A stretch of DNA of 36,274 nt from Cytophagaceae bacterium. Lineage in GTDB: Bacteria; Bacteroidota; Bacteroidia; Flavobacteriales; Flavobacteriaceae. The stretch's first letter is position 1. Every line of letters starts with the position of its first letter. The notes beneath the pieces are model-generated. The model was not told the origin of the DNA. It saw nothing but the letters and a program-made list of their open reading frames with translations, and searched no databases. Positions 205 through 35,300 of the stretch are shown here, one piece after another. The translations under genes and the position numbers were made by a program. The DNA lies in contig PAUP01000081.1 of the NCBI GenBank assembly GCA_002712765.1, positions 1 to 36,274 of the forward strand, in the 5' to 3' direction.

Positions 205-663
205 TTAGTGTTTGGCGTCATTTACTTCAATGTAATACCCATCAGGGTCTTGCAGGTAGAGTTGACGTATGCCATCGGGCCTTGTTGATAGCGCACCTTC
301 TTTACCTGGCCAGTCAGAGTATGTGATATTCATGCTGTGTAAGCTTTCGCGAAAGCGGTCTAAGTCGGAAACAGCCAGTGCTAGATGTACGCCTTTTGGA
401 ATTTTTTTATCCAGAGTATCGACTTCAATAATGTGAAGCTCGGCATCATCACCTAAACGGAACCATCTAATTTTTGGATTGTTGGTTCCGTTGGTGATTT
501 CTGTGAGTTTAAAGATCTTTTGGTAAAAAGAGACACTTTGTTCCAATTGGGATACGTTGATCGCAAAATGATCAATATCAAAGCTCACTTTTGTTTGCCC
601 GTATATGGGAAAGGCAAACACTACCGTGGCAAAGATGAGCCACAAACGTCCTTGTCTTGCCAT
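205..663 (-). CDS. Secreted VOC-family (glyoxalase/dioxygenase fold) protein
   Basis: The 152-residue product starts with a signal peptide (about residues 1-22, ending IYGQ) and is otherwise one vicinal-oxygen-chelate domain. The two beta-alpha-beta-beta-beta halves start at DHFAINV (31-37) and VHLALAV (92-98). Candidate metal ligands are H32, E75 or H77, H93 and E146 (IEVND); this is the spacing expected of a metal-binding VOC enzyme. The substrate cannot be told from sequence. The start codon lies one base after the stop of the upstream M20 hydrolase, so the two are almost certainly co-transcribed, and both are predicted to be exported. One exact copy of the 14-bp palindrome (343-356) lies inside the gene and is read as RFRES. 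Confidence 0.85.
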   Translation of the reverse strand: MARQGRLWLIFATVVFAFPIYGQTKVSFDIDHFAINVSQLEQSVSFYQKIFKLTEITNGTNNPKIRWFRLGDDAELHIIEVDTLDKKIPKGVHLALAVSDLDRFRESLHSMNITYSDWPGKEGALSTRPDGIRQLYLQDPDGYYIEVNDAKH

Positions 664-664
664 C

Positions 665-2095
665 TTAATTTTGATTTACTGGCGGAGGTCCAGCAGGTAC
701 AATAGCCTCGTAAATAGCATCGCCTTTGCGCTCTTTGTATTCGGCTTTAACCGCGTCAACAAGTTTTGGGTTTTCAAATAAATCAAGCATGGTCATCGCC
801 ATAGCTTTACTGGCGTAGGTCATTCCTTTATGCCCAATAGACATCCCGCCACAAGCAACAACAGCCCAAGAGTGCCAAGGCGTGTCTTTTGGAGCCGTGG
901 TTACACCTAGATTGATATTGGGTACATTCCAACTAACATCGCCCACATCGGTACTACCCCCTCCAGGATGATCCTTGGTTTCTTCCAAAGGATTTATTTT
1001 ACTATCCATGCCCACTTGCGGCTTACCGGTTACTTCTTGAATTTTCTTACCAAAGGCAATTTCTTCTGGGGTGTAGTTAATTGGACCCAATAATTCTAGA
1101 TTTTTTTGCATAATTTGGCCACCTGCTCTATTGACGAGCACTTCATAAATACCAGAAATAAGTGACACTTTATAATCGACGTTGGCCATAATGGCTGCGC
1201 CTTCTGCCATTTTTTGAACTCGTTCATACACGGGCATCATATCTTCTCTCTTGGTATCGCGCACCCGCATCCATAATCGGGCATAATCAGGTACTACATT
1301 GACCACCTGACCACCATCCTGAATGTGATAGTGCATACGCACCGTTGGTTTTACGTGCTCTCTGTAATAATTAATACCTGTAGTATACAATTCTAGAGCA
1401 TCAGAGGCCGATCTTCCATTCCAGGGGTCGGCACTGGCGTGAGCTGCTTGCCCAAAAAATTCTACTTTAAAATCGACCAAAGCAAGTGAACTTTGTACAT
1501 CGGCCTTGGTACTAGCAGACGGGTGCCAGCTTATATTGACATCTACATCATCCCAAATACCATCTCGTACCATCCATATTTTTCCGAAAAATTTTTCTTC
1601 AGAGGGTGTACCCATAAATTTTACGGTTCCTTTGATCTTTCCAGCCTCAATTAATTCTTTGACAGCTATAGCAGCACCAAGACTGCCTGCCCCAAAGAGA
1701 TTGTGACCACAACCATGACCAGCCGCTCCTTCGTTTAAGGGGGCTTTGGTAGGTTGCGCTTTTTGAGATATACCTGGGAGGGCATCAAATTCACCCAATA
1801 CACTAATAACTGGGCTTCCTGAGCCGTAAGTAGCGACAAAAGCTGTTGGCATACCAGCCACACCGCGTTCTACAGTAAAGCCTTGTTGCTCTGCATAATC
1901 GGCTAGAATTTTACTAGATTGTTTTTCTTCAAAAGCCGTCTCGGCAAGCGCCCAGACTTTATCTGAAATGTCGATTAGTGCTTTTTTATGTTTTTCTACA
2001 GATTCGACGATGGCCTTTTTGTTGGCAGTCATCTTTTGGGCAGTCATACTGCTGCATAGCAATATCACGGCCAGAAAGGCAAATACAGATTTCAT
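665..2095 (-). CDS. Exported M20-family amidohydrolase (AbgB-like)
   Basis: The 476-residue product has a signal peptide (1-20, ending SMTAQ) followed by an M20D-type metal-dependent amidohydrolase. The metal-binding part is visible: GEFDALPG (101-108), GHGCGHN (126-132, with H127, C129 and H131), SEE around 165-167 and WHPS at 190-193. Near the C-terminus are the glycine-rich GGGSTDVGDVSW and a PWHSW motif that fits the last metal-ligand histidine. The closest familiar type is AbgB, subunit B of p-aminobenzoyl-glutamate hydrolase, but here it is predicted to work outside the cytoplasm, so an N-acyl amino acid or peptide-like amide is a more cautious substrate guess. It is the first gene of a short operon with the VOC gene one base downstream. 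The 133-bp upstream gap shows no convincing promoter. Confidence 0.9.
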   Translation of the reverse strand: MKSVFAFLAVILLCSSMTAQKMTANKKAIVESVEKHKKALIDISDKVWALAETAFEEKQSSKILADYAEQQGFTVERGVAGMPTAFVATYGSGSPVISVLGEFDALPGISQKAQPTKAPLNEGAAGHGCGHNLFGAGSLGAAIAVKELIEAGKIKGTVKFMGTPSEEKFFGKIWMVRDGIWDDVDVNISWHPSASTKADVQSSLALVDFKVEFFGQAAHASADPWNGRSASDALELYTTGINYYREHVKPTVRMHYHIQDGGQVVNVVPDYARLWMRVRDTKREDMMPVYERVQKMAEGAAIMANVDYKVSLISGIYEVLVNRAGGQIMQKNLELLGPINYTPEEIAFGKKIQEVTGKPQVGMDSKINPLEETKDHPGGGSTDVGDVSWNVPNINLGVTTAPKDTPWHSWAVVACGGMSIGHKGMTYASKAMAMTMLDLFENPKLVDAVKAEYKERKGDAIYEAIVPAGPPPVNQN

Positions 2096-2228
2096 GAATA
2101 GTTGGTTTTGTTGAACGGTTCTAAGATAAGCAATTCAATACTTTTAACCATAGGGTGCCAAGAGATCTCCTCATGCCTAAGATGGGTTGTGTATGGTTCA
2201 AACAAAAACTAAAAAAATAAGAGTTTTA

Positions 2229-3539
2229 CTAACTAACCGCTTCTTTGTAGACTTTTAGACAACGCTCTCTTGCCGCTTTGTGATCTACCATTTTATCAGG
2301 GTATGACAGTTCTTGTAGGTCTTCTACCCAAGTGTTGATATACTCTTTCTGTTTGTCAAACTTATCGATTTGGGTCATGGGGTTAAAAATCCTAAAATAG
2401 GGTGCAGCATCAACCCCCGAGCCTGCCGCCCATTGCCAATTACCTACATTAGAACTCATTTCATAGTCTAAAAGCTTTTCGGCAAAATACGCTTCTCCCC
2501 ATCGCCAGTCAATGAGTAAGTGTTTGCATAAGAAACTCGCCACAAGCATTCGTACTCTGTTGTGCATATAACCCGTCTGGTTGAGCTGTCGCATACCGGC
2601 ATCTACCAAGGCGTATCCAGTTTTACCTTCGCACCATTTGGTAAACTCGTCTTCATTGTTACGCCATTCAATACGATCGTATTTGGCTTTAAACGCCTTG
2701 TCTTTAGTCTCTGGGTAGTGGTAGAGTATTTGCATAAAAAACTCACGCCATATCAATTCGTTCCAGAAAACCTCATTAGATTGGGCAATGGCTTTTCTCA
2801 CCATTTTTCGAACACTTACGGTACCAAATCTCAAATGAGGCCCTAAACGGGAGGTGCCATCTTTGGCGGGATAATTACGCGTGTCTTCATAGGATTCAAT
2901 TAAGGTAGGTGTCACATCATAGTCGGGTACACTAAGGTGTGATTTGGTAAAGCCCATATCAGATAAGGTGAGATTAGGGAGCCTACTGTGTTTGATCAGA
3001 TTAGAAAGAACCTGAGAAGTGTAATGCATTTCTAAATCCTTGTCAGGATCAAAATGTTCTTTCCACTTATTTTTAAATGGTGTATATACCACATAGGGAT
3101 CTCCATCTGCTTTGACAACCTCGTCCTTTTCAAAAATCACCTGATCCTTAAAGGTATGAAACGCGATACTATTTTTTTCTAATAACTCGGCAATGGTTGC
3201 ATCACGCTGTTTGGCATAAGGTTCGTAGTCTGTATTGGTAAATACAGCCGCCACGTCAAAGTCTTCTATCAATTGTTTGAAAATTGCTTCAGGTTTTCCA
3301 TAGTACATGGCTAGCGAGCTGTCGTGCTCTTTTTGCATCTCATCCCGCATTTTTTGAAGGGTGTCGTAAATAAAGGTAACACGGGCATCATCTTCGGGTA
3401 ATTTGTCTAAAATCTCACGATCAAAAATAAAAATGGGTAATACAGGATGATCAGATTTGAGCGCCTGATAAAATCCCACATTATCGTCTAATCGCAAGTC
3501 TCGGCGAAACCAAAAAATAGAAACAGCATCTCGGGCCAT
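2229..3539 (-). CDS. phrB: Deoxyribodipyrimidine photolyase (class I, FAD-dependent)
   Basis: The 436-residue product is a photolyase/cryptochrome family flavoprotein that repairs UV-induced pyrimidine dimers with light. The N-terminal antenna domain starts with FWFRRDLRLDDN (9-20). The FAD-binding helical domain contains TSRLGPHLRFGT (229-240), W264 (ELIWREFF), the lesion-contact WCEGKTGY (302-309) and NVGNWQWAAGSG (364-375), with the electron-transfer tryptophans in NWQW and DAAPYFRIFNP after it. Length and motifs match CPD photolyases rather than (6-4) photolyases. It is the last gene of the SRPBCC-SDR-photolyase operon, 36 bases after the SDR gene. That grouping recurs in marine bacteria and suggests a shared UV or light response. 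Confidence 0.95.
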   Translation of the reverse strand: MARDAVSIFWFRRDLRLDDNVGFYQALKSDHPVLPIFIFDREILDKLPEDDARVTFIYDTLQKMRDEMQKEHDSSLAMYYGKPEAIFKQLIEDFDVAAVFTNTDYEPYAKQRDATIAELLEKNSIAFHTFKDQVIFEKDEVVKADGDPYVVYTPFKNKWKEHFDPDKDLEMHYTSQVLSNLIKHSRLPNLTLSDMGFTKSHLSVPDYDVTPTLIESYEDTRNYPAKDGTSRLGPHLRFGTVSVRKMVRKAIAQSNEVFWNELIWREFFMQILYHYPETKDKAFKAKYDRIEWRNNEDEFTKWCEGKTGYALVDAGMRQLNQTGYMHNRVRMLVASFLCKHLLIDWRWGEAYFAEKLLDYEMSSNVGNWQWAAGSGVDAAPYFRIFNPMTQIDKFDKQKEYINTWVEDLQELSYPDKMVDHKAARERCLKVYKEAVS

Positions 3540-3575
3540 AGGATAGCAAATAGTTTACAAACAGTATATCTTGAA

Positions 3576-4274
3576 TTAAGAAATATTTAAGGTACTCATT
3601 CCGCCATCAACTCCCAAAACTTGACCTGTGATCCAACTGCTTTCATCACTTAGTAAAAAGCTAGCTACATTGGCAATATCGGTAGGCTGGCCAACGCGTT
3701 TTAAAGGGTGGCGCTTATCCATCATTTCTTTCTTTTTGTCATTGCTCAATAATCTATTGGCAAGCGGAGTATCGGTTAAAGAAGGAGCAATCACATTCAC
3801 TCTCATTTTTGGAGCATACTCTGCGGCTAGGGCCTTGGCAAATCCTTCAATAGCACCTTTGGCTGCTGCCACACTGGTGTGAAATGGCATCCCCACCTTA
3901 ACGGCTACGGTACTAAAAAATACCAAACTGGGTTGTTCGGCTTTTTTGAGATGCCCCATAACTTGATGCACGGTATTGACCATATGGAGAAAATTGAGCT
4001 CCATATCTTCTCTAAATACATCCATACTCAGATTGCTAAAAGGCTTGAGATTAATTGTTCCTGGGCAATAGACAAAACCGTCTAAGTGCTCTGGTAATTG
4101 ATCGAGGTCCAAACGATCTTCTTCTACGTCATATTGGATATGATCAATATCCAGATTACCTAATTTGTCATTGGTTCTTGAGGCCACATATACATTGTGT
4201 GCGCTGTTGAGTTTAGAAGCGATTTCAAATCCGATTCCGTGGCTTCCACCAATTAAAAGTATATTTTTTCTCAT
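3576..4274 (-). CDS. SDR-family protein lacking the catalytic tyrosine
   Basis: The 232-residue product has a short-chain dehydrogenase/reductase fold. The nucleotide-binding motif GGSHGIG is at 9-15, the structural Asn at N94, the catalytic-type Ser at S121 (FFSTVAV), and the C-terminal tail has the usual ITGQVLGVDGG. The active-site YxxxK is not canonical: the lysine is K139 but the position four residues before it is V135, giving SVAAAK. The usual Tyr acid/base is therefore missing, and the enzyme may catalyse an unusual reaction or only bind NAD(P)H. It starts 17 bases after the SRPBCC gene and is followed 36 bases later by photolyase. A role connected with light or DNA damage is inferred only from that context. 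Confidence 0.85.
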   Translation of the reverse strand: MRKNILLIGGSHGIGFEIASKLNSAHNVYVASRTNDKLGNLDIDHIQYDVEEDRLDLDQLPEHLDGFVYCPGTINLKPFSNLSMDVFREDMELNFLHMVNTVHQVMGHLKKAEQPSLVFFSTVAVKVGMPFHTSVAAAKGAIEGFAKALAAEYAPKMRVNVIAPSLTDTPLANRLLSNDKKKEMMDKRHPLKRVGQPTDIANVASFLLSDESSWITGQVLGVDGGMSTLNIS

Positions 4275-4291
4275 AGTAATTATTTAGTGTG

Positions 4292-4783: not shown

Positions 4784-4799
4784 ACGTCAATTTATAGGC

Positions 4800-7105: not shown

Positions 7106-8092
7106 TTAATGATATGAAAGACCAATTTCCTGACGAACTTGATCCAACAATTGCATGAGCTGTCTGCTTTTTTGCCAGGTCATCTGGGTGCTCTCTGTTC
7201 GCTTTTGTGCTAACATTTGATGACAGTGTACTATTTCATAATGATAGCCATTATAGGTGGTGGGAAATTCAAAAACTTCAGTGGTCTCACCTTTTGTGAT
7301 GCGCACCCCAGAAGGCTCATGAAATCTTGATACTAGTTCCATTTGGCCGTGTTCAAAGTAAAGCGTAGCTGTTGTTGGAGTATGTTGGTCTAAGGCCGAG
7401 TGCAACTTCGCTTTCACACCGTCTTTATAGTGTAAGGTCATGTGACAATGATGGTCGACGCCTGTAGGGCCAATTTCTGCGGTGGCGTTTAAGGATTCAG
7501 GCATTCCTAAAAAACTCAAGGCAGCAAATAAGGGGTAGATACCCACATCATAGAGACTGCCGCCACCCAATGATTTATTAAATAGTCTTCCATTTGGATC
7601 GTAGTCGGCTTTAAAACCAAAGTCTGCTTCCAGACCTGTAATCGCGCCTAAGTCACCACTTTTTTGCTGCGTCAACACAAAGTTAAAATGTGGTAAGAAT
7701 TGGGTCCACAAGGCCTCCATCAAGAAAACCGTTTGGTCTGGGTTTTTGTCATTATACGCTTTCGCGAAAGCGAGCATCTGGTCAACCTCTTGAAGATTCA
7801 TAGCAAATGCTTTCTCACACAGCACAGATTTACCTGCTCCCATACAGAGTATACTATGCGCTTTATGAAACATATGTGGGGTAGCAATATAAATGATATC
7901 CACCTCAGGATGGTGGGCTAGCTCTTGATAACTATCTAAAGCGTGAGCCGCTTGATAGTTTTGAGCAAATGCCTTAGCCTTTGCCAACGACCGGCTACCT
8001 ACCACATGTAGTTGTGCGCCTTCTGTTTTAATTAGATCTTCGGCAAACTTATGTGCAATTTTACCACAGCCTAAAATTCCCCATCGTATCAT
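7106..8092 (-). CDS. Gfo/Idh/MocA-family NAD(P)-dependent oxidoreductase
   Basis: The 328-residue protein has an N-terminal Rossmann fold with GILGCGKIA (5-13), the strand-5 region YIATPHMFHKAH (68-79), and CEKAFAMN (92-99), where the family lysine is K94 and the usual EKP reads EKA. The C-terminal sheet domain contains GGGSLYDVGIYPL (176-188). It resembles the dihydrodiol-dehydrogenase branch. These enzymes oxidise or reduce sugars and related polyols; the exact substrate is unknown. It lies nine bases after the SSS symporter, so it may process what the symporter imports. An exact copy of the 14-bp palindrome (7758-7771) is read as AFAKA at 109-113. Confidence 0.88.
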   Translation of the reverse strand: MIRWGILGCGKIAHKFAEDLIKTEGAQLHVVGSRSLAKAKAFAQNYQAAHALDSYQELAHHPEVDIIYIATPHMFHKAHSILCMGAGKSVLCEKAFAMNLQEVDQMLAFAKAYNDKNPDQTVFLMEALWTQFLPHFNFVLTQQKSGDLGAITGLEADFGFKADYDPNGRLFNKSLGGGSLYDVGIYPLFAALSFLGMPESLNATAEIGPTGVDHHCHMTLHYKDGVKAKLHSALDQHTPTTATLYFEHGQMELVSRFHEPSGVRITKGETTEVFEFPTTYNGYHYEIVHCHQMLAQKRTESTQMTWQKSRQLMQLLDQVRQEIGLSYH

Positions 8093-9957: not shown

Positions 9958-12489
9958 CTACTGTTTGATAGATTGGGGCTGCTGTTGTCCTACAGATAGC
10001 ATGTTGGCAAATAGTTTATAAGCTCCAGAAACCCCAGCTGGCAGTTCTCTAAAAAAGCTAAGCCCAGTATAGATGTAATGTCCTTCGCCATAAGGAGCGA
10101 TTAATAGGCTTCCATCTTTTGGAGTTTCTCCTTTATCATTCATAGATAGAATAGGGGTGTACTGGCCATCCCATTGGTCTGGAAAGTAAAGCCCGCGCTC
10201 TTGCGTCCAGCCGTCAAAATCTTTGGCCGTTATCTTATTCGGAAAATTAATAAGTGGATGCTCTTTGGCCAAAATTCTCACCTCACTAAATTCATCTGTA
10301 ACGCGATCTCTAGAGAGTTGGAGCGGGTACGGTGGTCCAATTTTTGTATTTCCCCAACGCCCGCTGGTATTGTATTGAGCAATCATAGTCCCCCCATTTT
10401 TGACATAGTCCAACAGTAATGGCTGTGCCTGTTGCATGGCTTCAACCACGTTGTAAGCGCGTATACCCACCACGACTGCATCAAATTGTGAGAGCCTGTC
10501 TGGAGTTAATTGGGTAGGGTCTAAAATAGCGACCTGATAACCCATCTGGGTGAGGTAATCAGGAACCGCGTCACCTGCTCCTTGAATGTAGCCAATATAG
10601 TCGCCTTTGCGTTTAATATCCAAGCGCACAATTTTGGCTTGAGCTGGTAAAAATAGGGTTTGAAGCGGTATGTGTTCATAATCAATTTGAACCATTTCTT
10701 TGTAGTAGACACCTTCTTGGGTAGTGACTTCGGGTATGAGGCTGGCTTCAGCTTCTGTATCGGGCGGGCTCACGGTAAACGTAAAACTGCGCTGTTCTCC
10801 TTTTTTTAAATTCGAAAAGCGCTGTGACTCAGATATCGTCCAGTTTTTGGGTGCTTTGAGCTTTACACTACCCGATAGTTGATCTTGATGTGCTGTGACG
10901 GTGGCTATAATTTCTTTGGGTTGCGCTTTCGCAAAAATTTGCACTTTACTATCTAAAGCAACCGAAGCCGCTGGAACCACCTCGAAAGGTTCATAGACCT
11001 CTCCTTTGACACGATCATTGAATTTGTAAACAATAGGCTGCTCATAGCTGAGTAAAGTGCCATCAATAAGTATGTTAAATACCACCGTATTATTTCTAGG
11101 GGTTTCTGGCTGTCCAATTAGGTTTTGATCTTCAACGTGATACATGCCCAGAGTTCCTTCCTTTTGTAACCAATAGGCATCGGTCGATAAAAATGAAGCA
11201 TCTACGGCTACGGTTTCTTCTGTAATCCAAGGCGTGTTATTAGATAATACTTCATCAGAGGCCAAGGTTTTTGAGGTTGGACTCAGTACAGCCCCTTGTA
11301 ATCGAATAGGGAGTGAAGATCTGTTGGTCGCTTCTAATGACAACGATATCGAATCACCCAGGGTTACCATTTGAGATGAGGCCTTGGCCTCTAGGTAAAG
11401 ACCTGCACAGGCTTTGATAAGTGCTTTAACATCGGCACTTTTAATCGTTTTCCAATGCGTGTCATCTATATTTTGAATGGCCTTGTAGATATTAACTAAG
11501 GCAGGCACACTCTTTTGAGGCGCTTTAAAGTCATAATTTTCAATAACGCGAGCCACTAGTTTACCAATTTCTTGCCCACCTTTAACTCGATTCCAAGAGG
11601 TGTCAATTCCTTCAAAAATGTCATTGTTTGAAGGCATATTCCCTTTAATCAGTTCAAAATAGGTCTCATTGACTCCACGTCTTCCTGTATTTCCAAACCC
11701 TTGAGACTTGTGTTGGCTTCGGCTCAGGGCTGATATTTCGGTATTTGACAGGCCCAAACCAGGATAATAGGTGCCTACATCAACCTTGACCAAATTGGAT
11801 TTATCCGCTTTCGCGAAAGCTTCCCTACTACCATAAAACCACCAAGAGGTATTGAAAAATTGTCGTTGAGGTGTCCAAGGGGACGTATAGGTTAATTGCT
11901 CCGGAAATACATTGGGTTTGCCTGCAAGATCAAAGGCTTCTACAGCCAGCATAGCGCTAGAGGTATGGTGGCCATGGGTGCTCCCCGGTGAGCGATGGTC
12001 AAATCTATTAATAATGACATCGGGTTTAAAATTTCGTATGGTCCAAACTACATCACTCAGCACTTCCTCTTTGTTCCATATAGCCAAGGTTTCATCGGGA
12101 TGTTTGGAATACCCAAAATCATTGGCTCTGGTAAAGCGTTGTTCACCGCCGTCTGTGGCGCGTGCAGCTAGTAATTCTTGAGTTCTAATCACCCCCAGAA
12201 GCTCTCTAAGTTCGGGGCCAATAATGTTTTGCCCTCCATCCCCTCTGGTAAGTGAAAGATAGGCTGTACGTGCCTTTACTGTGTTTGCAAAATAGGATAT
12301 AGCCGTGGTGTTCTCATCGTCAGGATGAGCAGCTACATATAATACAGATCCTAGAAAATTTAGTTTTTTTAAGTCTTCAAAAATTTCTGAAGCGGTTGGC
12401 TTTTCTGGTTTGAGGGTAATGCCTTGCGCTTGGATTTTAGCGACAAGCGTAAAACAAACGAGCAAAATAGTAGTGCAAATGTGGCGCAT
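9958..12489 (-). CDS. Exported PIG-L (LmbE-like) deacetylase, multidomain
   Basis: The 843-residue protein has a signal peptide (about 1-22) and an N-terminal PIG-L zinc deacetylase domain: AHPDDEN (54-60) and HGHHTSS (172-178) supply the zinc ligands. A central region of beta-sandwich character follows, and the C-terminal part (about 650-835) has a class-I glutamine-amidotransferase-like fold (VVVGIRAYNV, GGTMIAQYN, GEGHYIYTGLSFFRELPAG). The length is far above the 230-300 residues of simple PIG-L enzymes; it likely deacetylates a GlcNAc-containing molecule outside the cytoplasm. The ATG at 12489 is chosen because the upstream in-frame TTG (12516) lies inside the -7 element. An exact copy of the palindrome (11807-11820, AFAKA) and a degenerate one near 10925 lie inside the gene. 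Confidence 0.9.
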   Translation of the reverse strand: MRHICTTILLVCFTLVAKIQAQGITLKPEKPTASEIFEDLKKLNFLGSVLYVAAHPDDENTTAISYFANTVKARTAYLSLTRGDGGQNIIGPELRELLGVIRTQELLAARATDGGEQRFTRANDFGYSKHPDETLAIWNKEEVLSDVVWTIRNFKPDVIINRFDHRSPGSTHGHHTSSAMLAVEAFDLAGKPNVFPEQLTYTSPWTPQRQFFNTSWWFYGSREAFAKADKSNLVKVDVGTYYPGLGLSNTEISALSRSQHKSQGFGNTGRRGVNETYFELIKGNMPSNNDIFEGIDTSWNRVKGGQEIGKLVARVIENYDFKAPQKSVPALVNIYKAIQNIDDTHWKTIKSADVKALIKACAGLYLEAKASSQMVTLGDSISLSLEATNRSSLPIRLQGAVLSPTSKTLASDEVLSNNTPWITEETVAVDASFLSTDAYWLQKEGTLGMYHVEDQNLIGQPETPRNNTVVFNILIDGTLLSYEQPIVYKFNDRVKGEVYEPFEVVPAASVALDSKVQIFAKAQPKEIIATVTAHQDQLSGSVKLKAPKNWTISESQRFSNLKKGEQRSFTFTVSPPDTEAEASLIPEVTTQEGVYYKEMVQIDYEHIPLQTLFLPAQAKIVRLDIKRKGDYIGYIQGAGDAVPDYLTQMGYQVAILDPTQLTPDRLSQFDAVVVGIRAYNVVEAMQQAQPLLLDYVKNGGTMIAQYNTSGRWGNTKIGPPYPLQLSRDRVTDEFSEVRILAKEHPLINFPNKITAKDFDGWTQERGLYFPDQWDGQYTPILSMNDKGETPKDGSLLIAPYGEGHYIYTGLSFFRELPAGVSGAYKLFANMLSVGQQQPQSIKQ

Positions 12490-12513
12490 GATGGTGATTG
12501 TAATGAGTCCTCT

Positions 12514-12521
12514 CAAATATA
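12514..12521 (-). promoter_or_regulatory. -7 element of PIG-L gene
   Basis: Minus-strand TATATTTG is an exact TAnnTTTG match 24 bases before the ATG at 12489. No TTG at the right distance is visible. It implies that PIG-L and the genes after it can be transcribed separately from the MscS gene. Confidence 0.45.
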
Positions 12522-15718: not shown

Positions 15719-17197
15719 TTAATATGCCTTGGCAAAAAGTACACGCTGCTTTGACGGTTTTCCGCTGTATATACAGCTTCCTTCCTCGGGTTGTCCTTCT
15801 AACGGAATACAGCGTATTGTAGCTTTTGTTTCGTTTTTTATCGCCGCTTCAGAGGCTGCTGTGCCATCCCAGTGTGCGCTAATAAATCCAGTTTTATTTT
15901 CAAGTACTTCTTTAAATTCTGTATAGGTATTGACTTCGGTAATATGCGCGTCTCTAAATACTCTAGCCTTGTCATAGAGGGCCTCTTGAATTTCTTGCAA
16001 AAGGGCACTTACTTTATCGACTACATCTTCTTTGGCCACAAACTCTTTGGTAAGGGTGTCACGGCGTGCGAGTTCGACCGTTCTTTTTTCTAGATCTTTT
16101 GGTCCTATACCAATACGAAGCGGTACTCCTTTCAATTCGTATTCATTAAACTTCCATCCTGGTTTATGCGTATCTCTATTGTCAAATTTTACGCTTATAC
16201 CTCGTTTTCGTAAATCAGCTACGATTTCGTTGGCTACTTGAGAAATGGCCTCTAATTGTTCTTGACCTTTATATATAGGTACTATCACCACTTGATAAGG
16301 GGCAAGATTAGGGGGCAGCACCAAGCCGTGATCATCGCTGTGGGTCATGATCAGGGCACCCATAAGTCGGGTAGAAACACCCCATGAGGTGGCCCATACA
16401 TATTCTTGCTTGCCTTGGTTGCTTGTGAATTTGACATCAAACGCTTTCGCGAAATTCTGTCCAAGAAAATGTGAAGTTCCGGCTTGTAGGGCTTTTCCAT
16501 CCTGCATTAGTGCTTCAATGCAAAAGGTTTCGACAGCTCCAGCAAAACGCTCACTTTCTGTTTTTAATCCTTCTATTACTGGGATGGCAAGAAAACGTTC
16601 GGCAAAATCGGCATAGACTTTATTCATAAGCCTTGCCTCATCCATTGCTTCTTGCTCTGTAGCATGAGCGGTATGACCTTCCTGCCATAAGAATTCAGCA
16701 GTTCTCAGAAATAGGCGTGTTCGCATTTCCCATCGCACGACATTGGCCCATTGATTGATCAATAGCGGTAAGTCTCGATATGATTGAATCCAACCTTTAT
16801 AAGTGTTCCAGATAATAGCTTCACTAGTAGGTCTAACGATTAATTCTTCTTCTAACCGCGCTTCTGGGTCAACACGTAATTTACCTTCGCGATCAGGATC
16901 GTTTTGAAGCCTGTAATGCGTGACAACAGCACATTCTTTGGCAAAGCCTTCTGCGTTTTTTTCTTCGGCTTCAAAAAGACTTTTGGGCACAAACAAAGGG
17001 AAGTATGCATTTTGATGACCTGTCTCTTTAAACATGCGGTCAAGTTCTGCTTGCATCTTTTCCCAAATGGCAAAACCATAAGGTTTGATGACCATACATC
17101 CTCTTACGGCCGAGTTTTCGGCTAAATCAGCTTTTACGACCAATTCATTATACCATTTTGAGTAATCTTCGCTTCTACTGGTTAAATTCTTCCCCAT
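15719..17197 (-). CDS. proS: Prolyl-tRNA synthetase (ProS type 3, without editing domain)
   Basis: The 492-residue class II synthetase charges tRNA-Pro in the cytoplasm. Visible elements are VRPTSEA (121-127), motif 2 [15 protein letters not shown] (155-169) with [22 protein letters not shown] (240-254) and motif 3 with STRLMGALI (275-283). There is no INS editing insertion, and the chain ends in Tyr (KAY), as in archaeal/eukaryote-like ProS type 3, which is usual in Bacteroidota. It has its own promoter (17253-17280) and is divergent from the lipoprotein gene at 17301. Confidence 0.97.
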
Positions 17198-20149: not shown

Positions 20150-20692
20150 ATGAAACAGGTTGTAGGTTTTGGCGGTAGTAATAGTAAAAGCTCAATTAAT
20201 GCTGCTTTGGTACGCTATATTTTAGGGCAATTAGAAGGGGTGGCTACCAATGAGGTAGTTTTGATTAATTATGATATACCGATGTACGGTATTGATATCG
20301 AGCAAGAAAAAGGAATACCCATTGATGTACAATTACTCAAAAATGAGATTGAAAAAGCAGATGGACTTGTCATTAGCGTCAATGAGCACAACGGGTCTTG
20401 GTCTGCTTATTTTAAAAGCGTATTTGATTGGTTGACTCGCGCCGATAGGAATTTTCTAGAAGGCAAAAAGATCTTACTTAGCAGTACATCACCAGGAGCA
20501 CGCGGGGCCTCTAGCTCTCTCGATTATGCCAAATCAGTTATGCCGCGTTTTGGCGGTACTATAGTCGAATCATTTAGTTTTCCATCTTTTCAGGACCACT
20601 TTGACTCAGACAAACTCGAAATAACCGATGACAACTTGCGTTTGGGAGTGGCCGAGGTAATCGCTTCCTTTTTAAATGAATTATCAGATTAA
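20150..20692 (+). CDS. NADPH-dependent FMN reductase family protein
   Basis: The 180-residue protein has a flavodoxin-like fold: GFGGSNSKSSIN (7-18) is the phosphate-binding loop for FMN, and SVNEHNGSWSAYFKSVFDWL (76-95) matches the family segment around the flavin ring. It probably reduces FMN or a quinone/azo compound with NADPH in the cytosol. The start at 20150 is chosen because the upstream ATG lies in the terminator. Its TAA overlaps the stop of the convergent amylase gene by four bases. Confidence 0.88.
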   Translation: MKQVVGFGGSNSKSSINAALVRYILGQLEGVATNEVVLINYDIPMYGIDIEQEKGIPIDVQLLKNEIEKADGLVISVNEHNGSWSAYFKSVFDWLTRADRNFLEGKKILLSSTSPGARGASSSLDYAKSVMPRFGGTIVESFSFPSFQDHFDSDKLEITDDNLRLGVAEVIASFLNELSD

Positions 20693-22374
20693 TATTCGAG
20701 TAAAACTATAGAGAAGGGAGAATCTATTGTAACTTTTCCATCCTTTAAAGCGAGGCGTTGTCCAGAGTATGCATCTGTGATCATTTGGTCTTGAGTGTTT
20801 GCTGTGACCGCTTTCGCGAAAGCGGATCCTACTTCAATCGTCTTTTTACCTTTGGGAAGATCTAATCCAACCACCACCATGTCTACGTCTTCCTCATAGG
20901 AAAAACGACGGCTAAAGATATAAGGCGCTTTAGAAATCATTTGATGCTCACCAGCACCAATAGCAGGATGATTAGCTCTAAACTGTCCGAGCTTTTGCCA
21001 ATGGGTTAATACAGCTTTTGTCTCGGGATGATAAAGCGCATCCCAATTCATGAGACTGCGCAAGGTAGCATCTCCGCTTGTACCTTCTATGGTCAGATCT
21101 CTAGCGCTTTCGTCTCCGTAATAGATTTGGGAAATTCCTGGTGTGAGTAGGAGTTTTGTAGCTGTCTCCATGCTACGACTTCTGTCTTTGTCAAAAGGAT
21201 TGCCATCATCGTGAGAGGTGGCATAATTGACGATGCTTTTACCTTTTAAAGGCCCGTGTATGATACTGTCGTAGCGCGCAAAAAGGGTTTCATAATCATT
21301 CTGGGCGTCATACTTAAATTGAAAATTGATCAAATTGTCAAACCCGTGATCAAAATAATCTACTTTTTTATCACCAAGATCAAATTGACGCCCCTGTCCT
21401 GCCATAAAGTTGTACACCTCTCCAAACATAAAAAAATCATTGTCGTCTATGACGGCATCGGGATGATTTGCTTTATAGGTCTGAAAGGCTTTATCGGCTT
21501 GAGCTCTCAAAACGACCCAAGCGTCTTCTTCTACGTGTTTGGTGGTATCTACTCTAAAGGCATCAATCCCAAACTCCCTTATGTAATCTGTAAGCCATTT
21601 GATGATGTAATTACGGGGGGTACGGGCTAACCCACTTTCATTAAAAAAAGCGTCTAATTCTTTCATTTCCTGTTCATAACGTCCTTCGCTTTTCCATTTT
21701 TCTATCAAGTGAGGCGGTAGGGCAACTTCTTTGCTACTTTCCGTTTTTATATCAGAAAGATTAGTGACCAAATTACACTTGGTAGTATTTTCGTAGGTAG
21801 TAAAACCGCAATTAGGGCCTTTTCTTGCCCAATCTTCTCCCCAAAATGGATCTTTTTCTGAAGGATGACCTGTGTGATTAAGTACCACATCCATTACAAT
21901 GCGAATTCCATTGTCGTGTGCCGTGTCAACCAGTTCTTTAAGATCTTCCATAGTACCAAAATTGGGGTCGAGGCTGGTCCAGTCTTTGGCCCAATACCCG
22001 TGAAAACCATACGTATATCCAGTACCTTCATCCACACCGGCGTGGTTTTGTTCGACCACAGGGGTAAACCAAATAGCATTGACCCCAAGATCTTGAAAAT
22101 ATCCCTCTTCAATTTTTTGTGTGATCCCCTTTATATCTCCGCCTTTAAAACCTCTTAAAACGGCCGTTTCTTTTGTTCTGTCAAAGTTGACATCGTTAGA
22201 AGGGTCGGCATTGTAAAAGCGATCTGTCATCAAAAAGTACATATTGGCGGCTTCCCATATAAAAGGTTGCTCCTGCGTTTGCTTTAGGGCAATGTCAGGC
22301 GCCGATGGCTCTTGTTTACAGCCAATTAATGAGAAGGCAAGTAGTATTGCAAAAAGTGCCGTAGTATTTTTCAT
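20689..22374 (-). CDS. GH13 alpha-amylase family lipoprotein
   Basis: The 561-residue protein has a lipoprotein signal (LIGC, C19) and one GH13 catalytic domain. Conserved regions are DVVLNHTG (162-169), GIDAFRVDTTKH (269-280, nucleophile D276), MFGEVY (316-321, acid/base E319) and TSHDDGNPF (386-394, third acid D389 or D390). It hydrolyses alpha-glucans or maltodextrins at the cell surface or in the periplasm. It stands alone, not in a SusCD-type locus. The C-terminal sandwich contains an exact copy of the 14-bp palindrome (20810-20823), read as AFAKA. It is divergent from menA. Confidence 0.94.
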   Translation of the reverse strand: MKNTTALFAILLAFSLIGCKQEPSAPDIALKQTQEQPFIWEAANMYFLMTDRFYNADPSNDVNFDRTKETAVLRGFKGGDIKGITQKIEEGYFQDLGVNAIWFTPVVEQNHAGVDEGTGYTYGFHGYWAKDWTSLDPNFGTMEDLKELVDTAHDNGIRIVMDVVLNHTGHPSEKDPFWGEDWARKGPNCGFTTYENTTKCNLVTNLSDIKTESSKEVALPPHLIEKWKSEGRYEQEMKELDAFFNESGLARTPRNYIIKWLTDYIREFGIDAFRVDTTKHVEEDAWVVLRAQADKAFQTYKANHPDAVIDDNDFFMFGEVYNFMAGQGRQFDLGDKKVDYFDHGFDNLINFQFKYDAQNDYETLFARYDSIIHGPLKGKSIVNYATSHDDGNPFDKDRSRSMETATKLLLTPGISQIYYGDESARDLTIEGTSGDATLRSLMNWDALYHPETKAVLTHWQKLGQFRANHPAIGAGEHQMISKAPYIFSRRFSYEEDVDMVVVGLDLPKGKKTIEVGSAFAKAVTANTQDQMITDAYSGQRLALKDGKVTIDSPFSIVLLEY

Positions 22375-22427
22375 AATCGCATTTTAGATAGTACGAAACT
22401 AGTAAATTGAGGTGAGAAAATGTATTT

Positions 22428-22459
22428 TTTCGCTTTAAGCGAAAGAAAATGTATTTTTG
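22428..22459 (+). promoter_or_regulatory. -7 element of menA with adjacent inverted repeat
   Basis: TATTTTTG (22452-22459) matches TAnnTTTG exactly, 12 bases before the menA start. Just upstream, TTTCGCTT-T-AAGCGAAA (22428-22444) is a perfect inverted repeat where the spacer of the promoter would lie. No TTG is found at the usual distance, so activator or repressor control is possible. Confidence 0.4.
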
Positions 22460-22470
22460 ACACCATAAAA

Positions 22471-23379
22471 ATGCCTATGCCCGCACTTAAATCCTGGCTC
22501 TTAGCCGCACGTCTTAGGACGCTACCACTTTCTATCTCAGGGATTTTAATGGGCTCGGGGTTGGCGGCCTTAGAAGGCGCTTTTAGAGCCGACATTTTCT
22601 TATGGGCATCTCTTGTGACTCTGGGGTTTCAAATTTTGTCCAATTTTGCCAATGATTACGGAGACGGTATAAAAGGTACAGATAATGAGAGAAGGGTGGG
22701 CCCGGCAAGAGCAATGCAAAGCGGACTGCTCACCGCAGCCCAATTAAGGCTTGGGATGATTGTTATTTCGGTAATAACTTTATGCGCAGTGATTGTACTT
22801 ATTTATGTCGCATTTGGCAGCGATAAACTTTTATTGTCACTCTTGTTTTTGGGACTGGGTATTGCTGCTATGATTGCAGCCGTAAAATATACTGTAGGCA
22901 AGAGTGCTTATGGCTATCGCGGTCTTGGTGATGTTTTTGTATTTCTTTTTTTTGGTTTGATAGGGGTAGGCGGCTGTTATTTTTTGTTTGTTCAAGATCT
23001 GCATTGGCTTACTTTTTTTCCTGCCATCACTATAGGCTGTATGGCGACTATAGTTTTGCATTTAAACAATATGCGTGATCGAAAAGAAGACCAAAGCGTG
23101 GGTAAGCGTACACTGGCTGTAGTGTTAGGCAAGGAAAGATCGGTTAGCTATCACAGCGTTTTGGTCATTACAGCAATCGTTTTTTGGGTGGCCTATTTAG
23201 TATTTGAGAAGTTGCCATTTTACTTTTGGGCAAGCTTATTATGTTTTATCCCCTTGCTATTGCATTGGACAAAGGTCAGGACTATTGATAATCATCAAAA
23301 ATTAGACCCAGAGCTTAAAAAGGTGGCTCTTACTACCTTTTTGTTGGCGCTATTGTTCTTTGGGTTGTCGATGTTATAA
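22471..23379 (+). CDS. menA: 1,4-dihydroxy-2-naphthoate polyprenyltransferase
   Basis: The 302-residue UbiA-family membrane enzyme attaches the polyprenyl chain to 1,4-dihydroxy-2-naphthoate to give demethylmenaquinone. It has about eight to nine helices and both aspartate motifs: NDYGDGIKGTDNERRVGP (61-78) and NNMRDRKEDQSVGKRTLAV (199-217). The N-terminal WLLAARLRTLPLSISGILMG is typical of MenA. The ATG at 22471 follows the -7 element and is preferred over a start 51 bases upstream that lies 5' of it. It opens a plus-strand stretch with menC and menE. Confidence 0.95.
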   Translation: MPMPALKSWLLAARLRTLPLSISGILMGSGLAALEGAFRADIFLWASLVTLGFQILSNFANDYGDGIKGTDNERRVGPARAMQSGLLTAAQLRLGMIVISVITLCAVIVLIYVAFGSDKLLLSLLFLGLGIAAMIAAVKYTVGKSAYGYRGLGDVFVFLFFGLIGVGGCYFLFVQDLHWLTFFPAITIGCMATIVLHLNNMRDRKEDQSVGKRTLAVVLGKERSVSYHSVLVITAIVFWVAYLVFEKLPFYFWASLLCFIPLLLHWTKVRTIDNHQKLDPELKKVALTTFLLALLFFGLSML

Positions 23380-23528
23380 ATCTGGCGCTAAGAGGTGTTG
23401 CTTTCGCCAAAACGCTAACAGCACTTGCCTATCCTTTTCAGTTCATTCTTAAGTGGGTTGTCTATGAATTGATTTTTTACAGCCCATCGAAATGTAGTAA
23501 CTTCGTAATGGATGTAAAAGTCACGCTT

Positions 23529-26317: not shown

Positions 26318-27421
26318 ATGGATATGGCAACAAAGCGTCTTGTAAAAATACATCCTAAGTTTAAACTAAACGGTAGTTCATATACCACAGAAACCTTGCG
26401 AGCGCAGGCTTATGAATTTATCAAGGAGGGAGAGCCTTATCAAGAAGCAGTAGGAAATTTTCTTTTGGACTGGTTAAACGATTCAAAATACATCCTCACC
26501 CATACTTCGGGATCGACAGGAGCACCAAAACCGATTAAGATTTTGAAACAACATATGTTTCATTCGGCATTAGCAACTGCAAAGTATTTTTCCTTACCCG
26601 AAAAAACGACCGCCTTACTCTGTTTGCCAGTGGGTTTTATCGCAGGTAAAATGATGATAGCTAGAGCCTTAGTGTTAGGTTGGCATTTGGATATGGCCAT
26701 ACCCAAATCCAACCCTTTGGACGCTGTTTTTAGACGGTATGATTTCTGTGCGATGACCCCTTTTCAACTCGATAATTCCTTAGGGCGTTTACATTTGATA
26801 AAAAAACTCATTGTAGGCGGAGGCGCAGTAAGTCCTGCTCTTTTGCAACGTCTTAAGGAAGTAGACACCAAAATTTATGAGACTTACGGTATGACAGAAA
26901 CCGTTACTCATATTGCTGTGAGAAGAATCAATTCTAAAAAAGAGAAACAGCAGCTTATCCCTTTTAAGACAATGCCTAAAGTGACCGTTTCTGTAGATGA
27001 GCGTTCCTGTTTGATTATTAAGGCCAAAGCAGTAAGCCGTGATCCTGTAATTACCAATGATGTGGTCGAGTTACTGAGTCATAAACGCTTTATATGGTTA
27101 GGAAGGATCGATAATGTTGTTAATAGTGGTGGGATTAAGCTCTTTCCCGAACAAATAGAAGAGAAGCTCGCTACCGTCATCGATGTTCCCTTTTTTGTAG
27201 GGGGTGTTCCCGATGAGCAGCTTGGACAGAAATTGGTACTTTTTGTAGAACATCGCCAGCCATATGCTTTCGCGAAAGCGGATATAGCTCAATTAGAATT
27301 GGACAAATATGAAATTCCAAAAGCGGTATACACATTAGCTTCCTTTGACCGGACCGACAATGGTAAGTTGCGACGAGGACAAACCATTAGAAGATTTTTA
27401 ATAGCTCAAAAAGCCCACTAG
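26318..27421 (+). CDS. menE: o-Succinylbenzoate-CoA ligase (short form)
   Basis: The 367-residue AMP-forming ligase activates o-succinylbenzoate to its CoA ester. Core motifs are THTSGSTGAPK (61-71, phosphate loop), TYGMTET (189-195), WLGRIDN (260-266) and the C-terminal lysine K350 (DNGKLRRG). It is about 80-100 residues shorter than E. coli MenE because the N-terminal subdomain is reduced, which is usual in Flavobacteriia. An exact copy of the 14-bp palindrome (27266-27279) is read as AFAKA (317-321) in the mobile C-terminal domain. Confidence 0.92.
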   Translation: MDMATKRLVKIHPKFKLNGSSYTTETLRAQAYEFIKEGEPYQEAVGNFLLDWLNDSKYILTHTSGSTGAPKPIKILKQHMFHSALATAKYFSLPEKTTALLCLPVGFIAGKMMIARALVLGWHLDMAIPKSNPLDAVFRRYDFCAMTPFQLDNSLGRLHLIKKLIVGGGAVSPALLQRLKEVDTKIYETYGMTETVTHIAVRRINSKKEKQQLIPFKTMPKVTVSVDERSCLIIKAKAVSRDPVITNDVVELLSHKRFIWLGRIDNVVNSGGIKLFPEQIEEKLATVIDVPFFVGGVPDEQLGQKLVLFVEHRQPYAFAKADIAQLELDKYEIPKAVYTLASFDRTDNGKLRRGQTIRRFLIAQKAH

Positions 27422-32306: not shown

Positions 32307-32335
32307 TTATAAATTTATTGATAGCTTGTTTCATA

Positions 32336-32343
32336 TAATTTTG
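32336..32343 (+). promoter_or_regulatory. -7 element of patatin gene
   Basis: TAATTTTG matches TAnnTTTG exactly, 46 bases before the ATG at 32390. The nearest TTG (32318-32320) is 15 bases away, shorter than usual. Confidence 0.4.
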
Positions 32344-32389
32344 TACTTTTCAATATTGCCCCTGAGTAGATTGAAAAACCAAAAATGAT

Positions 32390-35300
32390 ATGAAATTTAA
32401 GTTATTTGGAATCGCAGACAAGCATAAATACATACTTTGGGGAGGCTTGACTATGCTAATGGGGATAGTGGCAGGAGTCTTTAAAATTAATGACTTTATC
32501 GCAAGTCCTCAACATGGGCATTGGGATCACTTTGAAGCGGTATCTCACGTGATTAGGCAAAGCAGCACGACAACCCTTGCCGCCTATTACCTGTTTTTTC
32601 TAGTCAATTTGGTATGGGCCTATACGTCATTGGCCATTATAGATAGTGGGGTAAGAGAACTCACCAAAACCATATATCCATCAAAGAAAAAAGGACTTCG
32701 TACAAAGGGTTATATCAATCCTAAACCTAAACGGAAAGAGGTCGTTTTTATTTATAGAATTTTTGCCGTGTCTGCTTTTGTTTTGAATCTCATTGAGGCT
32801 TTGCAGTACGTGGTTTTTAATAATGTAGGTCTTCCGTATATAGTGGTAGGTAAAAAACTGATGTATAGTATTTGTTTGTTATTTTTTCTGGGATATGTCT
32901 TCGAAAAATTTTTCCACAAACAATACAGAACCATTGCCCGATTTATTGGCACCTCCTTTTTTAGTTTACTATTTATTGGTTTAGTATACGTTTTACTAAC
33001 CTTAATGGCTCAAGGCGGAACCTTAGTGGTAGATATGGTCAACAGCGGCGGGAATTTATTTTTACTCTTTTTTCTCTTGATCTTTTTTGCCATAATTCTG
33101 GCACATTATCCTACCTACTTTGAGATATGGTGGTTTGGTAATAATAAGATCATGAGGTTAAGAAAAGCCCGATTTTTTCCGCTTAAGCGAAAACCAGAAC
33201 AGTATAAAACTTGGGATGATATCTGTAACATGGGTTTTGATCAGATCCAATCCGGAACTAAATCGATAAATACAAAAGATGTAATTACAGAGCCAAAAGG
33301 TCTTGGAGTGATCTATTATGACACCAGCCATGCCACTGCTGAAGCTAAGAAAAAATACGACAACGAAGATATCAAGCGTTGGCGTCGTAGTTTGGGAATA
33401 TTGATTTATGTGGCGTTTTTCAATATTTTTTTAGGCGTTTTTTCGGGTTATTTTGAATTTGATTTGGATGTGGTAGGGATTACCCTTGTTATATTAGCAA
33501 TTGCGTTGTATCGCTATCACTGGGAAGGAGAGCGCTATAATCGCTGGCGGGAAACGCTCAAAACGGCCGCTTCAAACAGCCATAGCGTTAATGAGGCTTC
33601 ACCAATTGGGCTTACCCTTAAGGAAATTTATCACTACACCCGACGATTTCCATTGTTTTTACTTATCAGCTTTTTGTCTAGTGTGACTACGACTATTCTA
33701 GGTTGGACCGTGGGTTGGAGCATCGCTACCCTGATCGCCATATTTGTAACCCTGATCTTACATACGTATCTCTATATCTATTTTAAAATATGCCGTACTT
33801 TTTTAAAGTATGTGTTTTTTAGTGAGCGCTTATACAATCGCAACCCTAAGATGTTTGACGTGCGCTACGTTTATCTATTTCATAAATACAGCGCTATTGT
33901 ACCTAATGCTGGTCGTACTATTTTATTTTGTTTTGGAAGTTTAAGTAATAATATTGTCTTTATCATCAGTATGAGTGTTAGTGGGCTGCTGTCTTTATTG
34001 TTATTGGTATTGTCCAATGCTTTTTTTGACGTGGCTGCTGCGATCAATCCCATCAACATTATTGTGCTGTATATCATTGCTCTATATGGGATTTTCTTTG
34101 TGCTTTTTAAGATCGTCTTATATTACAATCGCAATGCGACGGGTCTGCGCAGTAATTATTTTAAACGCTTTGGTATACCTATTGCCAGTGTTATCTTAAT
34201 AGGATGGATGGCAGTTGCGACAACCTTTAACAGTGATTTACACGAGCTAAGCCTACTTCCGGTCACCGCCGAAAAGGACATTGCTGCCAAAGATTTTTTA
34301 CAAAAACTACAACAATCTGATAAGGCCACAACGGGTCGCAATTACTTTTATATAGGATCTTATGGGGGAGGGCTCAAGGCCAATCTCTGGAATACCTTAC
34401 TTTTTTTTGAGCTTGACTCGCTTTCGCGAAAGCGTTTCTTTCATAAAACCGTGGCCATGTCTGGGGTTTCTGGTGGTGCCGTAGGGATTGGCAACTATGC
34501 GGCTTCTCGTTTTAATGCAAAAGAAGATGCCTTGTTGATGCGTCAACACATAGAAGATGTAGCCATGTCTAATGTACTGTCTTATGAATTGACGTTTTTA
34601 TTAGGATGGGATTTTATTAGAGAGCTAATCCCGGTGAATAAATTTAACGGCACCGATAGGAGCTATTATTCGATGCGCAATCATGCTCGGCTTACAGGTT
34701 TTGACGACGATCAGTTTAATACGATGACCTATAGAGGGTACTGGCAACAAATGTATGCAGCTTCTTCGGCGAGTTTTCCAATTTTGCTAACCAATACCAC
34801 CTCGACCCAAGGCAAGCAAGGAGTAGCCAGTTCTTTAAAATTACCCGATTCAATTTTTTCTGGAGCAGACAATATTCTCGACTTTCAAGGACGCAATAAG
34901 GACAAATCTCTTAGTTATTATGGCGCCATATCAACCACCAATCGTTTTCCGTTATTTAGCCCTACTGCCGAAATACCTTCTAAAGGGCATTACCTAGATG
35001 GAGGATACTTTGATAATTCGGGTTTATTAAGTGCACTTGAGCTTCACGAATATCTCGCTTATCTGGCCGAAAATGATCCCGAAATTGAAAGTTTAAATCC
35101 TGTTTTTATCAATATCATTAATTCCAAAAGCTATTATATCTCACGTAAAATAAAGGAGTGGAAGATACAAAGAGCCCCCGGTGACCCAGGTGTGGGAGAG
35201 CTTTCTGCCATTGTAGAGACCATAGCGTCTATAGACAAATTCCCAAGATATGTATCGGCCAAAATTAAAAATCGCAAGTTTATTCTTGAAGATATTTTTA

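What the first reader, a model, noticed from the sequence alone, without database searches (positions are those of the whole stretch)
343..34433. Dispersed 14-bp palindrome GCTTTCGCGAAAGC, six exact copies, all inside genes
Exact copies start at 343, 7758, 11807, 20810, 27266 and 34420. By chance one 14-mer is expected about 0.00014 times in 36 kb. All six are inside protein genes on both strands and read in three frames: AFAKA (four times), LSRKR and RFRES. Use of all three frames points to selection or spread at DNA level, not protein level. Several copies extend to a longer palindrome (for example 20808-20825, CCGCTTTCGCGAAAGCGG). This recalls HIP1 in cyanobacteria or DNA-uptake and chromosome-organising motifs. 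Spacing is 3-9 kb.
Basis: partly seen in the sequence, partly recalled or inferred. Interest (0 to 1): 0.78.

Follow-up and report, generated by a model that had tools for sequence, protein, structure and literature searches.

The report
Genus-wide repeated 14-base DNA palindrome
A group of marine flavobacteria carries one exact 14-letter DNA palindrome hundreds of times across each chromosome, kept nearly letter-perfect over long evolution, which looks like a self-recognition signal (perhaps for taking up DNA of their own kind) whose reader is not yet known.

Summary
The 14-mer occurs 369 times in the window's own incomplete genome and 385-905 times in all 17 same-genus relatives searched. 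It is dense in only 6 of 397 sampled family genomes (own included; three genera); the rest have 0-19 copies. One relative matches the Dokdonia donghaensis chromosome in length, so the genus is probably Dokdonia; a second dense genus contains Nonlabens.

Copies are nearly all-or-none (230 exact, 13 with one mismatch in about 0.8 Mb of that relative). They are 3.5 to 11 times denser between genes, spread around the chromosome, and in most stretches more evenly spaced than chance. A symmetric flank signature reaches about 20 bases each side. Selection acts on DNA: 73 of 80 AFAKA peptides use exactly this 14-mer, where codon usage predicts 0.3%; in one gene the site is intact in 15 of 15 genomes although few other codons are.

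The pattern resembles DNA uptake sequences more than methylase-linked HIP1, so I favour an uptake-like self-recognition signal spread by biased recombination (0.40); a chromosome-organising protein site is the main rival (0.25). The trans-acting factor was not found: four methylase families, ParB paralogues and the type IV pilus ATPase do not track the motif.

The parts
343..356 (.). exact 14-mer copy 1, in ORF 205-663(-) (VOC/glyoxalase-like, named by eye), read as RFRES
7758..7771 (.). exact copy 2, in ORF 7106-8092(-) (oxidoreductase-like, by eye), read as AFAKA
11807..11820 (.). exact copy 3, in ORF 9958-12516(-) (PIG-L-like, by eye), read as AFAKA
20810..20823 (.). exact copy 4, in ORF 20689-22374(-) (amylase-like, by eye), read as AFAKA; orthologous site exact in 15 of 15 genomes (window included) where this gene family was found
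27266..27279 (.). exact copy 5, in ORF 26318-27421(+) (AMP-ligase-like, by eye), read as AFAKA; same place occupied in G010, not in G017 or G001
34420..34433 (.). exact copy 6, in ORF 32390-35677(+), read as LSRKR
16443..16456 (.). one-sided near-copy GCTTTCGCGAAATT inside the prolyl-tRNA synthetase-like ORF 15719-17197(-); the same near-copy in one similar context recurs in regions fetched from relatives
23400..23413 (.). two-mismatch near-copy GCTTTCGCCAAAAC, just downstream of ORF 22420-23379(+)

Best explanation
The 14-mer is the invariant core of a roughly 50-60 bp symmetric recognition site, read by one sequence-specific, probably two-fold symmetric, DNA-binding machine of this lineage (Dokdonia, Nonlabens and one further genus). 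Most likely it is a self-DNA recognition or uptake-like signal: DNA carrying at least one site per few kb is preferentially taken up (or spared) and recombined into the chromosome. Sites then accumulate wherever genes tolerate them, tend to even spacing, and are kept exact by the drive. Shown here: abundance, lineage restriction, exactness, flank signature, spacing, intergenic enrichment, DNA-level conservation and decay by point mutation. Inferred: the reader protein, its dimeric nature, and that the process is DNA uptake with recombination.
For: 369 copies in the own genome, control 0; 385-905 in 17 of 17 same-genus relatives; more than 100 in 6 of 397 sampled family genomes (own included) from 3 genera, 19 or fewer in the other 391. 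G016: 230 exact, then 13, 29 and 40 with 1, 2 and 3 mismatches; 1.50 per kb between genes vs 0.14 in genes; no visible origin/terminus trend in 22 stretches. Intergenic excess is smaller elsewhere: 4- to 6-fold in four further stretches, 3.5-fold in the own genome. Spacing in the first 400 kb of G016: 4 of 106 gaps under 1 kb vs a simulated mean of 32. Flank signature C-poor and G/T-rich to about -20, similar though weaker inside genes. Conservation: 35 of 36 alignable sites exact at 87% mean flank identity, 24 of 27 at 78%; amylase-like gene site 15 of 15, 4/4 codons invariant vs 11/214 elsewhere. Density falls with genome size (Spearman -0.70, 13 genomes). Similar traits are described for Neisseria DUS (high conservation, mostly intergenic, permissive core positions, rare in acquired DNA; many new DUS too divergent from their homologues for point mutation) and Haemophilus USS (relatively even distribution, under-represented in coding and newly acquired DNA). 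ComEC, a necessary uptake component, is present in 15 of 15 dense genomes tested.
Against: A type IV pilus/secretion ATPase (PF00437 over cut-off) is present in only 5 of 15 dense genomes (and 3 of 21 sparse), so the pilus route of known uptake-sequence systems is not general here. ComEC is equally present in sparse genomes (20 of 21). No paper on Dokdonia competence appeared among the 10 listed of 1,569 in a loose search. Known uptake sequences are not palindromes (recalled), and USS are said to evolve by point mutation, whereas the gains seen here differ by many bases. Accessory DNA is not uniformly depleted: G005 3 sites in 11.4 kb and G016 14 in 66.9 kb, against 1 in 20.2 kb (G007) and 1 in 24.3 kb (G008). 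Spacing: only the two G016 stretches fall outside all 1,000 simulations; G005, G007 and G008 lie within the simulated range, and G008 is not over-regular by CV (1.01 vs 0.99). No trans factor was found.
Confidence: 0.4

Rival explanations
1. Binding site of a lineage-specific chromosome-organising (nucleoid) protein, a dimer that needs one site every few kb over the whole chromosome; sites are kept by direct selection.
For: Perfect palindrome with symmetric flanks, as expected for a dimer; fewer close pairs than the simulated mean in all five stretches; spread all round the chromosome; exact conservation while flanks diverge.
Against: No ParB/Noc-type paralogue: every genome has a ParB_N hit, and extra hits occur in 1 of 15 dense and 7 of 21 sparse genomes. 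No visible origin or terminus bias. Density falls in larger genomes, which a per-distance structural need would not predict.
Confidence: 0.25
2. Self-recognition signal for recombination/repair or nuclease protection (Chi-like), read on both strands because it is a palindrome.
For: One site per 3.6-7.5 kb; some viral contigs carry sites with the lineage's flanks, one contig with a phage transposase and repressor carries sites, whereas two Nonlabens phage records without an annotated integrase have none.
Against: Known Chi sites are 5-8 bases, not palindromic and strand-biased (recalled). The two site-free phages infect a dense genus.
Confidence: 0.15
3. HIP1-type palindrome created by DNA methylation and biased mismatch repair (Elhai model).
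For: Highly over-represented palindrome with a GC-rich core (TCGCGA) used in all three frames; the model is described in the abstract and part 1 of section 3.4 of PMC4390886.
Against: Genomes with a hit among 15 dense vs 21 sparse: C5 methylase PF00145 6 vs 11, N6_N4 PF01555 over cut-off 2 vs 4, N6_Mtase PF02384 14 vs 19, D12 PF02086 9 vs 5; none tracks the motif, though specificity inside a family was not tested. CGCG is not enriched beyond the motif in 400 kb of G016 (448 vs 371 expected, 107 of them in the motif; TCGCGA 45 outside it vs 29 expected). A 14-base invariant core is long for a methylase (recalled).
Confidence: 0.08
4. Mobile palindromic element (REP/MITE-like) inserted many times.
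For: Gains seen in one lineage only (G004; G007).
Against: The site-free orthologues inspected there align without a gap. Flank pairing within a copy is not above the shuffled expectation at most distances. Orthologous copies persist at the same place. A copy decays by point mutation.
Confidence: 0.03
5. Chance or protein-level conservation of AFAKA.
For: AFAKA is the commonest reading (59 of 102 in-gene copies are in that frame).
Against: 73 of 80 AFAKA codings are the 14-mer vs 0.3% predicted from codon usage; copies between genes and in all frames; reversed-pattern control 0.
Confidence: 0.01

Closest known systems
DNA uptake sequences (Neisseria DUS, Pasteurellaceae USS)
   Same: hundreds of exact copies, lineage-restricted, enriched in permissive/intergenic places, conserved in alignments, near-forms rare, fewer close pairs than chance (DUS/USS traits from passages; USS flank context recalled)
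   Different: 14-base perfect palindrome with a two-sided flank signature; sharper by rough arithmetic (from counts about a 740-fold fall in observed/expected from 0 to 1 mismatch, against 92- and 82-fold); Bacteroidota; no general type IV pilus ATPase; uptake bias untested
HIP1 and alternate HIPs (cyanobacteria)
   Same: highly iterated palindrome, found in genes in all frames
   Different: 14 bases instead of 8; one per 3.6-7.5 kb rather than about one per kb; no tracking methylase family among four tested; enriched between genes
parS / Noc sites / matS / SlmA sites
   Same: palindromic sites of about 12-16 bp read by a dimer (recalled)
   Different: many more copies, no regional restriction, no ParB paralogue
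Chi sites
   Same: one per few kb genome-wide (recalled)
   Different: longer, palindromic

Membership tests
DNA uptake sequence (DUS/USS) | preferential uptake of DNA that carries the motif | not testable with these tools
   needs an uptake assay
DNA uptake sequence (DUS/USS) | gross over-representation of an exact motif, falling steeply with mismatches | tested here: met
   230:13:29:40 for 0-3 mismatches in G016; five control 14-mers 0 exact in 400 kb; looser in G230, 14:14
DNA uptake sequence (DUS/USS) | type IV pilus machinery | tested here: not met
   PF00437 over cut-off in 5 of 15 dense genomes
DNA uptake sequence (DUS/USS) | inner-membrane channel ComEC | tested here: met
   15 of 15 dense; also 20 of 21 sparse
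DNA uptake sequence (DUS/USS) | rare in recently acquired DNA | tested here: inconclusive
   accessory: G005 3 in 11.4 kb, G007 1 in 20.2, G008 1 in 24.3, G016 14 in 66.9 kb; core 2.1-2.55 per 10 kb; density falls with genome size
HIP (Elhai) | highly iterated palindrome | tested here: met
HIP (Elhai) | a methyltransferase specific for the motif or its core | tested here: inconclusive
   four families tested, none tracks the motif; specificity within a family and base modification not testable
HIP (Elhai) | about one site per 1000 bases | tested here: not met
   one per 3.6 kb (G016) to 7.5 kb (own genome)
ParB/Noc site | cognate ParB-family paralogue in genomes with the motif | tested here: not met
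   single ParB_N hit in 14 of 15 dense genomes
matS / parS-like regional motif | restricted to terminus or origin | tested here: not met
   1.5-4 copies per 10 kb in 22 stretches around a single-contig chromosome
REP/MITE-like element | insertion relative to empty site, or paired arms beyond the core | tested here: not met
   gapless site-free orthologues at the lineage-specific gains inspected; flank pairing not above shuffled expectation except slightly at distance 2

The most novel reading that the evidence does not exclude
Bacteroidota have evolved their own DNA self-recognition/uptake signal: a long palindromic motif read by an unknown, non-pilus, probably dimeric receptor, which has written up to about 900 exact sites into Dokdonia chromosomes and also tags the metal-resistance islands that this lineage has passed to other genera.
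Probability: 0.33. Interest if true: 0.87.

Novelty: new variant of a known kind. Interest (0 to 1): 0.73.

Why it matters
Known iterated signals with a proven function are few (DUS, USS, Chi, KOPS; recalled). This one is very sharp, is confined to a few genera that include much-studied light-using marine bacteria, and has no known reader. Because the sites are exact and countable, uptake, binding and base-modification hypotheses can each be tested by one experiment in a harmless marine strain. The motif also works as a tag of donor lineage for transferred DNA. I saw no report of the 14-mer in the searches made (no paper; listings only, showing 20 of 37 papers and 8 of 69); most subscription papers, and the Nonlabens genome paper PMC3595038, are not held.

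Tried and rejected
Noc/ParB idea (core arms TTTC..GAAA recall parS): rejected, no paralogue in 14 of 15 dense genomes. Methylase idea: four families do not track the motif. Pilus-based uptake as general machinery: not supported. Hairpin/cruciform idea: flank pairing within a copy does not exceed the shuffled expectation (except slightly at distance 2) and lies below it at distances 4-9. Search for other 'dialects' in the named loci of 12 kb or more: several loci showed single 11-mers with 4 spaced copies, mostly A/T-rich; only two Bizionia loci showed a family of them, and those copies sit in similar contexts, so they look like gene-internal repeats. A 30-base version of the motif found only weak partial hits in phage (5 records) and plasmid (3 records) collections, none from flavobacteria; this query cannot find every 14-mer. 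No alignment across the AFAKA place of four window proteins was found in the 80 named loci, so AFAKA could not be compared outside the genus that way. My first AFAKA count (75 of 82) counted one 20-kb stretch twice; without it gives 73 of 80.
Full report
CHECK. All are in ORFs, on both strands, in three frames. The order-1 expectation is 0.00014.

GENOME AND TAXON SCALE. The own genome (2.77 Mb, 78% complete) holds 369 copies and 0 of the reversed control. All 17 same-genus relatives hold 385-905. In 397 genomes sampled from the family (own included), 80 have at least one copy, but only 6 (three genera: g1, g11, g210) have more than 100; the rest have 19 or fewer. In 295 genomes of the class, only the own genome is dense; the others have 0-4. 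G016, one 3,293,944-bp contig, has exactly the length published for Dokdonia donghaensis DSW-1T (whole short paper read, PMC4974333), so g1 is inferred to be Dokdonia. g11 groups with a Nonlabens dokdonensis isolate, whose locus also carries two copies. In that single-gene tree the dense rows need 3 changes, so one origin is not shown.

ANATOMY. Mismatch spectrum in about 0.8 Mb of G016: 230 exact, 13 one, 29 two, 40 three, 200 four. Four control palindromes and the reversed motif have 0 exact in 400 kb. All 253 TTTCGCGAAA there have GC on at least one side: 230 on both, 23 on one, 0 on none. The flanks are C at -1 (0.89 between genes, 0.83 in genes), A at -2 (0.75 and 0.44), T at -3 and -4, then G/T-rich and C-poor (2-8% C at 13 of the 15 positions -4 to -18 between genes) to about -20, mirrored on the other side; the profile inside genes is similar but weaker. 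Pairing of the two flanks within a copy is not above the shuffled expectation except slightly at distance 2, and is below it at distances 4-9. Similar flanks appear in g11 and in the island copies; g210 is looser (14 exact to 14 one-mismatch in 160 kb).

PLACEMENT. In G016, 128 intergenic copies in 85.6 kb against 102 in 729 kb of genes (my own simple gene caller), about 11-fold denser; 22 stretches around the chromosome hold 1.5-4 copies per 10 kb. The excess is smaller in other stretches: 0.57 vs 0.13 per kb (G008), 0.78 vs 0.13 (G005), 0.72 vs 0.17 (G007), 0.96 vs 0.15 (second G016 region). In the own genome, 8 intergenic in 16.6 kb against 18 in 132.7 kb of genes, window included, about 3.5-fold. 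Gaps under 1 kb, observed vs simulated mean (simulated minimum): G016 first 400 kb 4 vs 32.2 (20); G016 second region 4 vs 12.7 (5); G005 2 vs 10.7 (2); G007 5 vs 11.4 (4); G008 3 vs 7.6 (2). CV is below the simulated mean in four of five stretches and not in G008. Three of the four gaps over 9 kb in the first 400 kb of G016 are largely filled by very long ORFs (2,940, 4,432 and 5,053 codons); the fourth holds ordinary genes.

DNA-LEVEL CONSTRAINT. 73 of 80 AFAKA peptides in 0.99 Mb of G016 are written as the 14-mer; codon usage predicts 0.3%. In the amylase-like gene of the window copy at 20810, the site is exact in 15 of 15 genomes where the gene family was found; 4 of 4 of its codons are invariant against 11 of 214 amino-acid-invariant codons elsewhere. 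Among alignable sites, G008 to G007: 35 of 36 exact (41 sites in all, 5 not alignable) at 87% mean flank identity; G008 to G016: 24 of 27 (14 not alignable) at 78%; G016 to G008: 26 of 31 (21 not alignable). Flank identity alone would predict about 15% and 3% (arithmetic). Some sites between genes are kept where the surrounding DNA no longer aligns well.

GAIN AND LOSS. A recent loss is one point mutation in G007. Two lineage-specific gains inspected are gapless but differ from the site-free orthologue by many bases (G004; G007 against G008 and G005, 6 and 5 mismatches). The Neisseria DUS paper reports similar cases and reads them as gain through recombination (passages of PMC2397512). The Haemophilus paper holds that USS evolve by point mutation. 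Density falls with genome size across 13 same-genus genomes of at least 93% completeness (Spearman -0.70; rounded sizes); copy number is not significantly related to size. The own genome and four same-genus genomes under 90% complete (G001, G002, G006, G012) were left out. Accessory stretches give a mixed result.

MOBILE DNA. Several genomes of other genera carry their few copies in clusters. Of 13 stretches fetched around such clusters, 10 share a family of homologous islands; ORFs of two of them are cus/cop/czc-type metal-resistance genes. One site there is exact in 7 of 8 aligned copies although flanks are 71-100% identical; other sites show 1-2 mismatch or stronger decay. I infer that these islands evolved largely in dense hosts and were exported. 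Two Nonlabens phage records have no copy and no TCGCGA. Some viral contigs carry copies with the lineage's flanks, and one with copies has a phage transposase and repressor.

TRANS FACTOR. Genomes with hits among 15 dense and 21 sparse: C5 methylase 6 and 11; ParB_N all, with extra hits in 1 and 7; T2SSE over cut-off 5 and 3; N6_N4 methylase over cut-off 2 and 4; ComEC 15 and 20; N6_Mtase 14 and 19; D12 methylase 9 and 5.

JUDGEMENT. The traits fit an uptake-like, self-recognition motif spread by biased recombination best (0.40). A nucleoid-protein site (0.25) and a Chi-like signal (0.15) are not excluded. The HIP/methylase reading is weaker (0.08). Of the literature I saw: abstract and part 1 of section 3.4 of PMC4390886 (a word search), passages and one section of PMC7811141, passages of PMC1939737 and PMC2397512, the whole of PMC4974333, and search listings only for the rest.

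Noticed in passing
L306-L309, L311-L313, L315, L316, L318 (genomes G118, G127, G254, G141, G376, G029, G386): Related islands in genera that otherwise nearly lack the motif; ORFs examined in L307 and L309 are cus/cop/czc-type metal-efflux and copper-oxidase genes. Their motif copies mark them as probably coming from the dense lineage.
   Followed up: partly
L139 (IMGVR_UViG_3300039191_000362), L130, L147: Viral contigs with motif copies; several have the lineage's flank signature, and L139 has a phage transposase (Mu-type, inferred) and a phage repressor.
   Followed up: partly
L342, L343 (Nonlabens phages P12024S, P12024L): Neither phage genome has a motif copy or a single TCGCGA, although the host genus is dense.
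   Followed up: no
L319-L325, L282 (G230): A third dense genus with a looser motif: as many one-mismatch as exact copies in 160 kb, often GCTTTCGCGGAAGC or ACTTTCGCGAAAGC.
   Followed up: partly
L319 10551-19627 (G230): Five copies of CACATAACGCT(CA) and six of GAGACCGTTGT at about 0.5-4 kb spacing, in several cases about 70-110 bases from each other; it recalls an integron cassette array (recalled, untested).
   Followed up: no
window 16443-16456: One-sided copy GCTTTCGCGAAATT in the prolyl-tRNA synthetase-like gene, recurring in relatives; perhaps the protein (NFAKAF) blocks completion of the site.
   Followed up: no
L230-L231 (G016 287-321 kb): Two giant ORFs (4,432 and 5,053 codons) without any motif copy, near each other.
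   Followed up: no
L031, L043 (Bizionia): An 11-mer family around AAACTATTT recurs, in similar contexts that look like gene-internal repeats.
   Followed up: yes
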